This document shows positions 3,762 through 8,639 of a DNA stretch of 50,402 nucleotides, one piece after another. Source of the stretch: Limisphaerales bacterium (GTDB lineage Bacteria > Verrucomicrobiota > Verrucomicrobiia > Limisphaerales > BOG-1460); contig PLQC01000124.1 in NCBI GenBank assembly GCA_003159675.1, positions 37,650 to 88,051 on the forward strand. The letters are read 5' to 3'. The notes beneath the pieces were generated by a model. That model saw only the letters and a program-made list of their open reading frames with translations. It was not told the origin of the DNA and searched no databases. The translations under genes were made by a program, and so were the position numbers. The stretch's first letter is position 1. Each line of letters starts with the position of its first letter.

Positions 3762-5087
3762 CTATCGTTTCGGCAGCCACTCATTTAATTTCTTCTCGTC
3801 TTCCGCCGTCGCACCGGCAAGGTGCAGCAATTCCATCGCCTCGCCGATGAGGTAAAGCGAGCCTGCGATGACGACGAAGGGATCCCCGGCCGTTTTCTCC
3901 AGCGCGTCGGCGAGCGAGGCGCAGACCTCGATGCGGGCGCGAGGGTTGGCCTCGCGGCAAACGGACACCAGTCTGGCGGGATCTTCGGTCCGGTCGCTGT
4001 GGATCGGCGTGAGCAGGAGCCGCCCGGCCAGCGGCGCCAGCGATTGACACATGCTGGCCGAGTCCTTGTCCCGGAAGACGCCGAAAATGAGCGCGGGCCT
4101 GGATTCGGGGAATTCGGCCTCGATCGCCACGCGCAACGCCTCGGCACCGGCGGGATTGTGCGCGCCGTCGAGAAGGAGGGTTTGCCCTGACGCCTCCTGC
4201 ACGCGCTGCATGCGGCCCGCCCAGCGAACCGATTCCAGGCCCGCGCGGAGCGCGGCGTCGCCGACGGGGATCAGCCCCTCGAGCGCCCGAACGGTGGCTG
4301 CGGCGGTCGCGGCATTGAGCCGCTGGTGCGGACCGTGGAGCGGAAGGTCGATCGCGTCCAACGGAGGACGGACGGCCTGCAGCGGCTCGACGACCGTCAG
4401 CGGCGCCTTCTTCCGCGCCGCCTCCGACGCGATGACCTCAAGCCCTTCGCCCGGTCTTGCCGCCGTGATGACCGGCACGGCGGGTTTGATGATCCCGGCC
4501 TTTTCCTCCGCGATTTTTTCAAAGGTGTCGCCGAGCCATTCGGAATGCTCGATGCCGATGTTGGTGATGACGCTCGCCAGCGGGGTGACGATGTTGGTCG
4601 CGTCGAGCCGTCCCCCCAGGCCGGTCTCCCAAACGACCAGGTCGCATTTCTGCCCGGCGAAATAGCGCAACGCCATGACGGTGATGAATTCAAAGAACGT
4701 GGGGTGCAGGTCCTGGCTGGGATCTCCGGCTTCCGCGGGCCAGGATGCCGCCGGCCCTCCGAACTTGAAACTCAGTTCCCTGAGTTCCGCCACCAGCCGG
4801 ACCACGTCCGATTCGCCGATGAACCGGCGGTTTATCTGGATGCGTTCGGCGAAGCCGACGAGGTGGGGCGAGGTGAACAATCCGACGCGCAGACCCGCCG
4901 CGCGATAGATGCTTTCGAGCATTGCGCACGTGGAACCCTTGCCATTGGTGCCGGCGACGTGGATGAAGCGAAGCGGGTTCTGCGGGTCGCCCGCCAGCGC
5001 GGCGAGCTTGAAGGTTTTCTCCAAACCCAATTTCGCGCCGAACAGGCGAAGGCTGTAAAGAAATTGAATGGCGTCCGAGTAAGTCAT
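3762..5087 (-). CDS. folC: Folylpolyglutamate synthase / dihydrofolate synthase
   Basis: Adds glutamate to dihydropteroate and/or extends the polyglutamate tail of folates, using ATP. The 441-residue protein has the Mur-ligase-like P-loop HVAGTNGKGST at about residues 43-53. The family segment TSPHL follows near residue 78, then TNIGIEHSEWLG in the middle. The C-terminal domain carries LLDGAHNP and a FGVFRDKD segment, both typical of FolC. The gene stands alone upstream of the HAD phosphatase. The next 570 bases upstream hold no gene, so its promoter should lie just above 5087. Confidence 0.95.
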   Translation of the reverse strand: MTYSDAIQFLYSLRLFGAKLGLEKTFKLAALAGDPQNPLRFIHVAGTNGKGSTCAMLESIYRAAGLRVGLFTSPHLVGFAERIQINRRFIGESDVVRLVAELRELSFKFGGPAASWPAEAGDPSQDLHPTFFEFITVMALRYFAGQKCDLVVWETGLGGRLDATNIVTPLASVITNIGIEHSEWLGDTFEKIAEEKAGIIKPAVPVITAARPGEGLEVIASEAARKKAPLTVVEPLQAVRPPLDAIDLPLHGPHQRLNAATAAATVRALEGLIPVGDAALRAGLESVRWAGRMQRVQEASGQTLLLDGAHNPAGAEALRVAIEAEFPESRPALIFGVFRDKDSASMCQSLAPLAGRLLLTPIHSDRTEDPARLVSVCREANPRARIEVCASLADALEKTAGDPFVVIAGSLYLIGEAMELLHLAGATAEDEKKLNEWLPKR

Positions 5088-5660
5088 CGTTCAACGGCAA
5101 ATGATGTCGCTGGAACTTATGTGAACGGGTGCCATTCCGCCATGATATTTGCCTGAACCCGGAGACAGCGGTGCGGGAGGAACTGCACGAAGGGCAGGAC
5201 GTGTCACTCCGTCCGCGCGGTGGCCGATCAACCGCAAGAAACGCACGGATCGCAAAGAGCCGGAGCTTTCCACGAATTGCGAATTAACACGAAGAACCGG
5301 CAGGGGATACGGGCGACTCGCCCGTCTCGTTCGGCGACTCGCCGAACGAAATGAGAGGGAGCGATGAATTGGCAGGAATCGTGGCTGCCTGTTTGAGGCG
5401 CGCCGCCATTCCGTCCGGCGAGTCGCCGGACGGCACAGGCTGGTAGCCCGTGCTACCCGAACCGGCACGCTGACTTGAAAATAGCATGGATTATCCGCGG
5501 CACCCGACAACGACGATTTTGAAAGGATGAGGAAAGAATGATGAATGAGGAAATCCCAGTTTGCTCGAATCGTCGCGGCAAGGCTTCATCTTTCTGGAAT
5601 CAACCTTCTGCATTCGGAATGGTGGGCTCCGGCCCGCCCGGCTTGGCCTAAAGTGGCAGC
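5088..5660. other. Gene-free stretch built of decayed repeats
   Basis: I see no credible gene here. The stretch holds a fragment resembling a CCGCAAGAAACGCA-type repeat (about 5231-5262), the palindromic composite element at 5303-5458, and a segment rich in GATGAATGAGGAA-like words (about 5525-5560). It then runs into the broken hicBA pair. It looks like a repeat graveyard. Confidence 0.6.
5303..5458 (+). repeat. Composite palindromic repeat, copy 1 (156 bp)
   Basis: The element has three strong palindromes: ACGGGCGA-C-TCGCCCGT (5309-5325), a 23-base one centred on 5338 (5327-5349), and a 23-base one centred on 5422 (5411-5433). They are followed by a fourth hairpin that ends in GTGCTACCC (5450-5458). 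A second copy with the same order, spacing and length is at 47689-47845. The variable part lies between the second and third palindromes. Confidence 0.75.
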
Positions 5661-5871
5661 ATGAAGCGATTGACCGCGATCATTCCATCCGGGTGAAACG
5701 AAGCGCTGGCTGGTGGCCTTCAACACGGAGATGGGCACAACAAGTCAGGGCCGCACAGTAGAGCAGGCTTTCGCGAATTTGAAGGAATCCACGGAGCTCT
5801 ATCTGGAGGAAAAGACGTTGCCGGAACGTTCACCCGCATTTCTCACAACGTTCGAGGTTGGCCATGCCTAA
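5661..5871 (+). pseudogene. hicB: HicB-type antitoxin, frameshifted remnant
   Basis: HicB proteins neutralise the mRNA-cleaving toxin HicA. The reading frame opens at 5661 with MKRLTAIIPSG and hits TGA within 12 codons. From about 5692 the neighbouring frame continues as WLVAFNTEMGTTSQGRTVEQ, then AFANLKESTELYLEE, and ends in FLTTFEVGHA at 5869-5871. Together these match the beginning, middle and end of a short HicB of about 70 residues, so one indel near 5685-5693 has broken the gene. Its stop overlaps the start of the hicA remnant, as in intact hicBA pairs. Confidence 0.75.
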
Positions 5872-5965
5872 ACTGCCGTGCGTGTCAGGACAGAAAGTCG
5901 CGAAAGCACTAGAACGGCTCGACTTCGAGCAGCGCCGGCGGTGCGGCAGTCGGAGGTCGGGTTAG
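5864..5965 (+). pseudogene. hicA: HicA-type toxin, truncated remnant
   Basis: HicA is a small double-stranded-RNA-binding-fold mRNA interferase. The frame from ATG 5864 reads MPKLPCVSGQKVAKALERLD, then FEQRRRCGSR, and stops at TAG 5963-5965 after 33 residues. It begins like HicA (SGxxVxKALExLGFE) but is lost just where the catalytic His of the family's GSH motif should be: the GS is followed by Arg. Family members are usually 60-80 residues. With the broken hicB upstream, this is a dead toxin-antitoxin locus. Confidence 0.72.
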
Positions 5966-5998
5966 AATCAGAAACTCCAGGCTGCGAACGCAGCGGCC

Positions 5999-6244
5999 TT
6001 ACTTCACCTCCACGCCGGTCGCAGCCTGTCCGGCCTGCAAAAAAGTTTTGATGAGTTCACCTTCGCCGCACACCATCATTCCGGAAAATCTTTTGAACCA
6101 TTTTCCTTCCGGCACTTCAGGCCGGGTGTCCAGCCATTCCGCCAACAAGCCGAGCTGGTCCGCGGAAACGTTCCGGCTTTTGATTCGTTCCAGCAAATGC
6201 TCGAACAGCGGGCGAGGCAAATTGCTGCGCTGAACGTGGGGCAT
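5999..6244 (-). CDS. Small conserved-looking protein, second gene of a two-gene pair
   Basis: An 81-residue soluble protein of unknown function, beginning MPHVQRSNLPRPLFEHLLER. It has a helical N-terminal half, a central segment with the motif GKWFKRF, and the sequence GEGELIKTF near the C-terminus. It has no signal peptide or membrane segment. It starts 2 bases after the stop of the gene upstream (6247-6456), so the two are almost certainly cotranscribed. I recall similar pairs in verrucomicrobial genomes but can name no established family. The tight pairing, the size of both proteins and the nearby antitoxin genes suggest, but do not show, a toxin-antitoxin-like module. Confidence 0.72.
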   Translation of the reverse strand: MPHVQRSNLPRPLFEHLLERIKSRNVSADQLGLLAEWLDTRPEVPEGKWFKRFSGMMVCGEGELIKTFLQAGQAATGVEVK

Positions 6245-6246
6245 GG

Positions 6247-6456
6247 CTAATTGCCGTAAAATCCGCGGGCGAGGGCGGTTTTCAATTTTTCGACCTCCGC
6301 AGGATCGTCGGAATCAACCATTCGCTGCGCCAGGGTCGACAGCTCTTTTCCCAGAAGCTGGCGCGTGCGCGCCAGTTCAAAAGCAAATTGAATGACTTGC
6401 GATTGTTCAGCCGGCGGCAGGTGCTTGATTTCCTCGATTACTTTGGTCGCTGTCAT
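6247..6456 (-). CDS. Small helical protein, first gene of a two-gene pair (antitoxin-like)
   Basis: A 69-residue charged, helix-rich protein beginning MTATKVIEEIKHLPPAEQSQ. The segment IEEIKHLPPAEQSQVIQFA resembles the helical dimerisation part seen in several small antitoxins (DUF2281-like), although I cannot assign a family. It ends in ARGFYGN. The downstream gene begins 2 bases after its stop. It may be the antitoxin half of a pair whose other half is the 81-residue protein. No DNA-binding ribbon or helix-turn-helix is evident. Confidence 0.72.
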   Translation of the reverse strand: MTATKVIEEIKHLPPAEQSQVIQFAFELARTRQLLGKELSTLAQRMVDSDDPAEVEKLKTALARGFYGN

Positions 6457-6533
6457 ATCGAAACAATACCTGAAACCGGACCGTGCGCAAACTCAACCAG
6501 GAAGCAGAGAACGGAGTCGGAAGGAGAACGACG

Positions 6534-6740
6534 TCATTTCAAGAGCAGTTCATTGAAAACGTCGTCGTCCGCGTTGTCCCAGGTCTTCGACAGCGATTCC
6601 TCGGAAATCTTCAGCCACGCATCGCGTTCCGTGTCGCCCGACTCAATGGTCACGCGCACGTGAGATTTTTCAGGAAGCGACAGCGGCTGCGACAACAACA
6701 GTTTGCCGTTCTCGTAAATGGCTTCGACTGTTTTTGTCAT
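6534..6740 (-). CDS. AF2212-like (DUF104) antitoxin, apparently orphan
   Basis: A 68-residue protein whose first half, MTKTVEAIYENGKLLL then PLSLPEK, is the small beta-barrel typical of AF2212/DUF104 antitoxins. The tail, with SKTWDNADDDVFNELL, resembles the toxin-binding tail of antitoxins that pair with PIN or MazF-type toxins. The start is placed at 6740, since an in-frame start at 6791 adds a segment without similarity. No PIN or MazF gene follows: 77 bases downstream comes the unrelated two-gene pair. It is therefore an orphan, or its partner is a new type. Confidence 0.75.
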   Translation of the reverse strand: MTKTVEAIYENGKLLLSQPLSLPEKSHVRVTIESGDTERDAWLKISEESLSKTWDNADDDVFNELLLK

Positions 6741-6835
6741 GAGGAGACGTTTCCGGCTGGTCGTTGCATTGGCAAGTCTGAGGCATGGCATGGGCTTTCC
6801 CTCGCCTCTCCGCAGCTTGCTCCGGCCCAGCCAAT

Positions 6836-7021
6836 CTAAAGCACGAACTCCACATTAACGGGCTTCGGCCTTTGCTCTATTTCCTCACGCGTAGGTGGAA
6901 AGCGCCGGAATAATTTTTCGTTTAGCCGAAACGCCTCTTCGGTTGACATTCTTGGAGTGAAAGGATTTTTGGCAAGCCAAGCGGCTCTTTGCTTTTGCAA
7001 TTCTGTTTGCTTGGTTTTCAT
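6836..7021 (-). CDS. Small protein of unknown function downstream of pyrG
   Basis: A 61-residue hydrophilic protein, beginning MKTKQTELQKQRAAWLAKNP and ending VNVEFVL. It starts 4 bases after the pyrG stop, so it is probably read through from pyrG. A longer frame reaching up to 7240 would lie inside pyrG and is not credible. I recall short proteins with a motif like MSTEEAFRLNEKLF and a DVEFVL-like end elsewhere in Verrucomicrobia, without known function. There are no cysteines, signal peptide or membrane segment. Confidence 0.6.
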   Translation of the reverse strand: MKTKQTELQKQRAAWLAKNPFTPRMSTEEAFRLNEKLFRRFPPTREEIEQRPKPVNVEFVL

Positions 7022-7025
7022 ATTT

Positions 7026-8639
7026 TCACAGCGGTTTCTGGTGCAGCCGCGCGAGGGCCGCCGCGATGAATCCCTTGAACAACGGGTGCGGCTGGTGAGG
7101 TTTGCTCTGAAACTCCGGGTGGAACTGGCTCGCGATGAAAAACGGGTGCTTGGGCAGCTCGATGATCTCGACCAGCTTGCCATCCGGCGTGAACCCGCTG
7201 AAGACGAAATCCGCCTTCTCGAACTGCTCGCGGTAGGCATTGTTGAATTCGTAGCGATGCCGATGGCGTTCCTTGACGATGAAGGCCCCGTATAACTGTG
7301 CCGTCTTGGTTCCGATGACCAGTTGGCAGGGCTGCGCGCCGAGGCGCATCGTGCCGCCTTTCTGGGTCACCTTGGTTTGCTCGTCCAGCATGGCGATCAC
7401 CGGATGGGGCGTGTTGGGGTCGAATTCGGTCGAGTGGGCCTTGGCCAGCTTCAACACATTCCGCGCGAACTCGATGGTGGCGATCTGCATGCCCAGGCAC
7501 AGGCCGAGGTAAGGCACATTGTTTTCGCGGGCGTAGCGGGCGGCCTTGATTTTTCCCTCGATGCCGCGCTCGCCGAAGCCGCCGGGGACCAGAATGCCGC
7601 CCAGGCCTTTCAGGATATTCTCGGCGCCTTCGGGTTCGATTTGCTCGGCATCCACCTTCACGATTTCGACACCGCAATCATTGGCTATGCCGCCGTGGAT
7701 GATCGCCTCGTAAACGGACTTGTAAGCGTCCTGGAGCTCGATGTATTTGCCAACCACGCCGATGCGGACGCGGTGCTGCGGGGCGATGAGCTTGCGCATG
7801 ATTTCCTGCCAGTGCGTCATGTTGGCCAGCGGCATGTCCAGGTGAAGCAGACGGCAGACAAGATCGTCGAGCCGCTCCCGTTGGAGCATCAGCGGGACCT
7901 CATAAATGCTGTGGTCCACGTCCTTTTCCTCGATGACGGCATCGAAGGGCACGTTGCAGAAGAGCGAGATTTTCTGGCGCAATTCCTTGTCCAGCGGCCG
8001 TTCGGTGCGGCACACGAGAATGTGCGGTGCGATGCCGATTTCGCGCAGTTTGGCGACGGACTGCTGGGTGGGTTTGGTCTTCAACTCGCCGGCGGCCTTG
8101 ATGAAAGGCACGTAGGTGACGTGCATGAACACCACGTTGCCCGTGCCGGCTTCCAGCGCAAACTCGCGGATCGCTTCCAGGAACGGCAGGCCCTCGATGT
8201 CGCCGGTGGTGCCGCCGATTTCGGTGATGACCACGTCGGCGTTGCTTTGTTCGGCGAGGACGTGAATCCGTTTTTGAATTTCATCGGTGACGTGCGGGAT
8301 GACCTGGACGGTTTTGCCAAGGTATTTGCCCTCGCGCTCGTTGTTGAGAACGGTCTGGTAAACCTGGCCGCTGGTCAGATTGTTCAGCCGGGTCAGTTTC
8401 ACATTGGTGAACCGCTCGTAATGGCCCAGGTCGAGGTCCGTTTCCGCCCCGTCGTCCAGAACATAAACCTCCCCATGCTGGTACGGATTCATGGTGCCGG
8501 GATCGACGTTCAGATACGGGTCGAACTTCTGCAGCACGACCTTGAGTCCGCGGTTTTCGAGCAGGGTGCCCAATGCGGCCGCCGTCAGGCCCTTGCCCAG
8601 CGAACTCACCACTCCACCCGTGACAAAAATGTATTTCAC
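7026..8639 (-). CDS. pyrG: CTP synthase (glutamine-hydrolysing)
   Basis: Makes CTP from UTP, ATP and glutamine, the last step of pyrimidine nucleotide synthesis. The 537-residue length is normal. The N-terminal synthase domain opens with the P-loop [12 protein letters not shown] and the segment [19 protein letters not shown]. The C-terminal class I glutaminase has GGFGERG, the nucleophile Cys near residue 378 in LGLCLGMQ, and the His-Glu pair in FHPEFQSKP near 505. The start codon is GTG. It follows kdsB by 16 bases; CTP is a substrate of KdsB, so the pairing makes sense. Confidence 0.97.

What the first reader, a model, noticed from the sequence alone, without database searches (positions are those of the whole stretch)
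5999..6456. Unnamed two-gene small-protein module, possible new toxin-antitoxin type
Two genes of 69 and 81 codons are separated by 2 bases on the minus strand. The first is a charged, helical, antitoxin-like protein. The second has a compact domain with GKWFKRF and GEGELIKTF motifs. The neighbours are a dead hicBA pair and an orphan DUF104 antitoxin, so the locus sits in a toxin-antitoxin hot spot. I recall similar pairs in other Verrucomicrobia, which suggests mobility, but no established name.
Basis: partly seen in the sequence, partly recalled or inferred. Interest (0 to 1): 0.6.

Follow-up and report, generated by a model that had tools for sequence, protein, structure and literature searches.

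The report
Unnamed toxin-antitoxin gene pair, Verrucomicrobiota
Two tiny neighbouring genes that recur together across one order of Verrucomicrobiota look like a self-contained poison-and-antidote pair whose poison belongs to a protein family not found in the family databases searched, and which has a relative inside a giant phage protein.

Summary
In detail: 69- and 81-codon genes, 2 bases apart, minus strand. Both are real genes. Gene 2 is under purifying selection (median dN/dS about 0.23) and matches no Pfam, NCBIfam, PHROG or PADLOC family. In the window's order, 61 of 320 genomes carry gene 2, patchily and at mostly unrelated chromosomal sites; elsewhere in the phylum it is rare. All 50 intact gene-2 loci from those genomes have a gene-1 tail (about 35 residues, ending GFYG or close to it) in frame just upstream. 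The reverse fails: 18 loci keep full gene 1 with gene 2 broken or gone. Gene 1 is modular. Its N-terminal half also precedes Fic/Doc, PemK/MazF and PIN toxins, and its tail occurs behind an HTH domain before gene 2. This is the anatomy of a type II toxin-antitoxin module with gene 2 as toxin. The gene-2 model (pLDDT 78) is alpha-alpha-beta-beta-beta with a helix histidine (47/51) and last-strand threonine (51/51), the residue pattern of BECR-fold RNases; DUF4258 is the nearest family by profile, but weakly. A gene-2 domain also starts a polyvalent protein of jumbo phage Tunturi_5. Toxicity, neutralisation and RNase activity are untested. It is a new toxin family within a known kind of system.

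The parts
6247..6456 (-). Gene 1, 69 aa: predicted antitoxin. Residues 1 to about 33 are an N-terminal module shared with antitoxins of Fic/Doc, PemK/MazF and PIN toxins; residues about 34-69 are a tail ending GFYG specific to gene 2.
   Evidence: ORF; alignment A1 with 12 invariant positions incl. GFYG; full, N-only and C-only hit classes; partner toxins
5999..6244 (-). Gene 2, 81 aa: predicted toxin of an unnamed family; two helices then three strands, H16 in helix 1 and T67 in the last strand
   Evidence: ORF; alignment A3; residue counts; AF2 model pLDDT 78, pTM 0.66
6245..6246 (-). 2-base spacer; the two genes are tightly packed, as in most homologous loci (short gap or overlap)
6534..6740 (-). 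AF2212-like (DUF104) orphan antitoxin directly upstream; separate element in the same hot spot
   Evidence: Pfam PF01954 E 2.2e-10
5713..5965 (+). probable hicB/hicA remnant (opposite strand)
   Evidence: partial PF07927 HicA E 0.012, below cut-off; sequence
6836..7021 (-). 61-aa ORF ending NVEFVL just downstream of pyrG; unknown small element
5088..7025 (.). pyrG-folC interval, 1.9 kb here against a few tens of bases in seven relatives: insertion hot spot holding the module

Best explanation
A mobile, two-gene type II toxin-antitoxin module. Gene 1 (first in the operon) is the antitoxin: its N-terminal helical module dimerises and/or binds the promoter, and its GFYG-ended tail wraps and blocks gene 2. 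Gene 2 is the toxin, an 81-residue protein most likely of the BECR (RelE/colicin D/EndoU) fold that cuts RNA with a helix histidine and a last-strand threonine. When gene 1 is degraded or not made, free gene 2 stops growth by cleaving RNA (mRNA or tRNA). Shown: the pair, its conservation, linkage, dispersed sites, one-way dependence and gene-1 modularity. Inferred: DNA binding, neutralisation, toxicity. Inferred more weakly: BECR fold and RNase chemistry.
For: Every one of 50 intact gene-2 loci from the order has the gene-1 tail in frame upstream; 18 full gene-1 loci have gene 2 broken or absent; no intact gene 2 stands alone. Gene-1 N-module recurs before other toxins: 11 of 20 N-only loci have a Fic motif downstream, one has PemK/MazF (E 1.7e-24), one PIN (5e-12); a representative Fic scores 6e-11. 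The gene-1 tail recurs behind an HTH domain (L083-L085, L097, and L212 outside the order) or short basic N-termini (L072, L077, L094, L095), always before gene 2. Gene-1 and gene-2 distances correlate (r about 0.58, p 0.001). Flanks are shared by only about ten pairs among some 60 loci; the pyrG-folC site is closed up in seven relatives. Fold: a-a-b-b-b, H16 47/51 and T67 51/51, the His-in-helix plus S/T-in-strand pattern given for BECR RNases in PMC5512222. Profile comparison: DUF4258 scores 20.8, above all 150 and all 80 column shuffles, while ParE, BrnT and PemK do not beat their nulls.
Against: No toxicity data. The Foldseek search of the gene-2 model finds nothing significant (best E 1.2; RelE 4fxe_D and YafQ 4mmg only weakly, E 4-5, with TM 0.34-0.49). 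DUF4258 gathers only 2 of 51 members at E<1, best 0.012; hhalign probability is 17.5% over 38 columns. H16 is replaced in 4 of 51. A prediction of the gene 1-gene 2 chain failed (pLDDT 52). The one-way loss could also come from transcriptional polarity. Mantel partial correlations do not single out the gene-1 tail over the N-module (0.39 v 0.42). No plasmid carries gene 2 or gene 1.
Confidence: 0.72

Rival explanations
1. Type II toxin-antitoxin module as above, but gene 2 is not a BECR RNase: a helical-hairpin plus small sheet that inhibits another target (gyrase, ribosome, membrane) with no catalysis.
For: No significant fold match, DUF4258 link covers only the helical half, the strongly conserved R6, P10, W49, K51, C59-G60 have no assigned role.
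Against: Helix-His and strand-Thr conservation, strand order and the DUF4258 profile signal.
Confidence: 0.3
2. A conserved two-gene regulatory or accessory operon that is not toxic; gene 1 is a repressor/chaperone and gene 2 an effector of unknown, non-toxic role.
For: Toxicity is untested; polarity alone could explain why gene 2 never survives without gene 1.
Against: Gene-1 N-module is that of antitoxins before Fic, PemK and PIN toxins; patchy distribution, dispersed sites and frequent decay fit selfish modules.
Confidence: 0.15
3. Reversed roles: gene 1 is the toxin and gene 2 the antitoxin.
For: Some modules have the toxin gene first (HigBA, BrnTA, HicAB).
Against: Gene 1 swaps N-terminal DNA-binding-like domains while keeping a partner-specific tail, and persists when gene 2 is lost; a free toxin should not persist.
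Confidence: 0.04
4. Anti-phage module: gene 2 is the effector and the related domain in phage Tunturi_5 is a stolen counter-defence copy (decoy that titrates gene 1 or replaces the toxin).
For: Gene-2 domain at the N-terminus of a jumbo-phage polyvalent protein with ART-PolyVal, SprT-like, 2'-5' ligase and GNAT domains; His and an alcohol residue kept.
Against: A single phage record, phage host is an acidobacterium by its name, no defence genes shown next to the module, no PADLOC hit.
Confidence: 0.12

Closest known systems
[quoted passage not shown] 13 Pfam families, PMC11980606)
   Same: Small monodomain protein encoded after a small antitoxin; RelE order is b-a-a-b-b-b-a, the model here is a-a-b-b-b with a bridge near residue 3; His/Thr pattern of BECR RNases
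   Different: No Pfam hit over cut-off, no significant structural match, no profile similarity to ParE or BrnT; conserved W49-F-K and C59-G motifs are its own
DUF4258 (PF14076), BECR-fold toxin family of unknown target
   Same: H-x3-R-x3-R-x-I-S helix motif; T in the last strand; antitoxin-toxin gene order
   Different: Weak profile link only (17.5% probability, 2 of 51 members at E<1); C-terminal half does not align
Fic/Doc, PemK/MazF and PIN modules of the same order
   Same: Same gene-1 N-terminal module in the antitoxin position
   Different: Different antitoxin tail, unrelated toxins
Panacea/DUF4065 hyperpromiscuous antitoxin network (PMC8832971)
   Same: One antitoxin domain combined with many toxins
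   Different: Different domain; in Panacea the shared domain neutralises, whereas here the swapped tail is presumed to do so
PBECR RNase domains of phage polyvalent proteins (PMC5512222)
   Same: Gene-2-like domain found in a polyvalent protein; His-in-helix plus S/T
   Different: Not matched to a named PBECR family; solo TA versions form the bulk of the family here

Membership tests
Type II toxin-antitoxin module | two small adjacent co-directional genes | tested here: met
   2-base gap in the window; short gaps or overlaps in 49 of the 50 intact loci checked, 54 bases in L067
Type II toxin-antitoxin module | invariable linkage of toxin to antitoxin | tested here: met
   50/50 intact gene 2 with gene-1 tail upstream; none alone
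Type II toxin-antitoxin module | antitoxin with exchangeable N-terminal DNA-binding/dimerisation part and partner-specific tail | tested here: met
   N-module with Fic, PemK, PIN; tail with HTH or short basic N-termini. DNA binding itself not shown
Type II toxin-antitoxin module | patchy, horizontally moving distribution | tested here: met
   61/320 genomes; few shared flanks; closed-up pyrG-folC site in relatives
Type II toxin-antitoxin module | toxin inhibits growth, antitoxin protein neutralises by binding | not testable with these tools
   needs experiment; chain prediction uninformative
RelE/ParE (BECR) superfamily | BECR fold: N-terminal helix or helices then 3-5 antiparallel strands | tested here: inconclusive
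   model a-a-b-b-b but Foldseek not significant
RelE/ParE (BECR) superfamily | commonly, His in N-terminal helix and S/T in strand 4 | tested here: met
   H16 47/51, T67 51/51; phage copy keeps His and an alcohol residue
RelE/ParE (BECR) superfamily | sequence-profile match to a member family | tested here: inconclusive
   DUF4258 above shuffles, ParE and BrnT not
DUF4258 (PF14076) | match above the curated cut-off | tested here: not met
   best E 0.012 in 2 of 51 members
RelE-type toxins | RNase activity | not testable with these tools
   needs biochemistry

The most novel reading that the evidence does not exclude
Gene 2 founds a new BECR-like RNase toxin family that serves both as a chromosomal toxin-antitoxin effector in Verrucomicrobiota and as a domain that a jumbo phage carries in a polyvalent protein, and gene 1 belongs to an unrecognised plug-in antitoxin system in which one N-terminal module is joined to toxin-specific tails for at least four unrelated toxins.
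Probability: 0.4. Interest if true: 0.62.

Novelty: new member of a known kind. Interest (0 to 1): 0.47.

Why it matters
It adds a toxin family that the searched annotation libraries miss, in a phylum with little toxin-antitoxin work found here. It also exposes a modular antitoxin: the same N-terminal half is joined to different tails for Fic, PemK/MazF, PIN and this toxin, which gives a way to find further unknown toxins by searching for genes next to that half. The phage copy gives a testable link to phage-host conflict.

Tried and rejected
Searches for gene 2 in plasmids, a viral contig collection, Pfam, NCBIfam, PHROGs, PADLOC and PDB sequences found nothing usable. One phage hit survived, and searching with the phage domain found no further phages. 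A read-through gene 1-gene 2 chain was predicted to see the interface; confidence was too low to use. An apparent gene 1-gene 2 similarity (the aligners pair gene-1 tail with gene-2 helix 2) did not clearly beat shuffles (3 of 150) and was dropped. A Mantel test for the gene-1 tail tracking gene 2 better than the N-module was negative. Weak gene-2 matches inside long ORFs (L207/L211, L209, L210) look like chance or remnants; L208 looks like a decayed pair.

Full report
Observation. Neither reaches a Pfam, NCBIfam, PHROG or PADLOC cut-off. They lie between pyrG (7026-8639, minus) and folC (3762-5087, minus), with an AF2212-like (DUF104) antitoxin directly upstream (E 2e-10) and a probable hicBA remnant on the other strand (weak).

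Relatives. A scan of one genome per bacterial and archaeal species found 11 gene-2 loci, labelled Verrucomicrobiota apart from naming oddities, and every one had gene 1 immediately upstream. With a gene-2 profile, 61 of 320 genomes of the window's order match (34 of 154 high-quality ones). Elsewhere in the phylum matches are few: the wider searches returned 3 of 388 and 2 of 289 genomes, the window's own included. Gene 2 is under purifying selection: dN/dS 0.08-0.37 among the listed pairs, median 0.23 over 78 pairs with dS below 1.5.

One-way dependence. In 80 loci collected by gene-2 and gene-1 searches of the order, 42 have full gene 1 plus intact gene 2, and 8 have intact gene 2 preceded by a protein sharing only the gene-1 tail. 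18 have full gene 1 with gene 2 broken or absent, and none has intact gene 2 without the tail. A few of the 18 lie near contig ends (L142 certainly), so the number is approximate. This is what a toxin that needs its antitoxin predicts; polarity of the operon is the alternative.

Gene 1 is modular. The gene-1 profile returns three classes: full length, N-terminal only (about 1-35) and C-terminal only (about 29-69). Of 20 N-only loci read, 11 have a Fic motif (F-x-D-G-N-K-R) 200-420 bases downstream of the antitoxin start, one a PemK/MazF toxin (1.7e-24) and one a PIN protein (5e-12); a representative Fic protein scores 6e-11 in Pfam. RelE-like ORFs follow in some others by eye but gave no Pfam hit. 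The tail-only class has an HTH domain (L083-L085, L097; the Pfam HTH hits are below cut-off, best 3.5e-4) or a short basic N-terminus in front of the same ELxxLA...GFY(G) tail, and stands before gene 2. The one intact-like relative outside the order with gene 1 (L212) also has the HTH version, although its gene 2 is frameshifted.

Dispersal. All-against-all comparison of flanking ORFs from some 60 loci shows shared neighbourhoods only for about ten pairs, mostly close relatives. At the window's own site, seven relatives have pyrG followed by folC with a gap of roughly 15-60 bases and nothing between, whereas the window has 1.9 kb of small modules; other relatives carry different inserts there. 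No gene-2 or gene-1 copy was seen in plasmid records.

Gene 2 as a protein. AlphaFold2 on eight sequences gives helix 11-22, helix 28-39 and strands 48-53, 56-61, 64-69, with mean pLDDT 78 and pTM 0.66. RelE is described as b-a-a-b-b-b-a (PMC11980606). Foldseek finds no significant match in the PDB; among weak hits, RelE 4fxe_D, YafQ 4mmg and 7etr_D (SO_1444-SO_1445 complex) have the highest TM-scores of the listed hits (0.34-0.49). The viral library gives none. Conserved residues are R6, P10, V44, W49, G60, T67, L69, G77 in all 51, and H16 47, R20 48, R24 49, K51 49, C59 49 of 51. A helix histidine with a Ser/Thr in the last core strand is the common BECR active-site pattern (PMC5512222). Profile comparison with DUF4258, a BECR toxin family of unknown target, scores 20.8 against a shuffle maximum of 17.4; ParE, BrnT and PemK give nothing. 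I therefore prefer a BECR-like RNase at about even odds or slightly better, but do not file gene 2 as DUF4258, whose cut-off it fails.

Phage copy. A gene-2-like domain (32% identity over 72 residues; profile comparison probability 98%) opens gp321 of jumbo phage Tunturi_5. The stretch of gp321 read here also has SprT-like, 2'-5' RNA ligase, ART-PolyVal and GNAT domains, the make-up of polyvalent proteins. Only one phage record has it.

Verdict. Shown: a real, selected, obligately ordered, dispersed two-gene module with a modular first gene. Inferred from that anatomy: a type II toxin-antitoxin system with gene 1 as antitoxin. Inferred more weakly: a BECR-fold RNase toxin. Not tested: toxicity, neutralisation, DNA binding, RNA cleavage. 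The toxin family is unnamed in the databases searched here; the kind of system is known.

Noticed in passing
window 6836-7021 (-); L250 and L244 between pyrG and folC: A 61-aa ORF just after pyrG ends NVEFVL; in L250 a nucleotidyltransferase-like ORF (weak NTP_transf_5, E 8e-4) is followed by a 68-aa ORF ending CIVEFVL, and L244 has one ending EEFVL. Possible small partner of a nucleotidyltransferase module.
   Followed up: partly
L157-L159, L161, L162, L166, L167, L171-L173, L175 (Fic); L163 (PemK); L169 (PIN): An N-terminal antitoxin module 'MTAxxVIEEIKxLPPxEQxxV' precedes at least three unrelated toxin families with different tails; the examples scanned have no Pfam hit over cut-off. Searching genes next to it should reveal more toxins.
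   Followed up: partly
L016 2938-6216 (PP885688.1 gp321): A gene-2-like domain is the N-terminus of a polyvalent protein annotated 'MutT/NUDIX hydrolase' in phage Tunturi_5; Pfam shows ART-PolyVal, SprT-like, 2'-5' ligase and GNAT in the stretch read, no NUDIX.
   Followed up: partly
window 6534-6740 (-) and L061: A protein about 68% identical to the window's DUF104 antitoxin region lies next to the gene pair in L061 too, but on its other side: toxin-antitoxin pieces cluster in shifting order.
   Followed up: no
L009 / L060: The record titled Akkermansia muciniphila MAG carries a decayed copy identical to that of a genome of the window's order (G405), so the public label is probably wrong.
   Followed up: no
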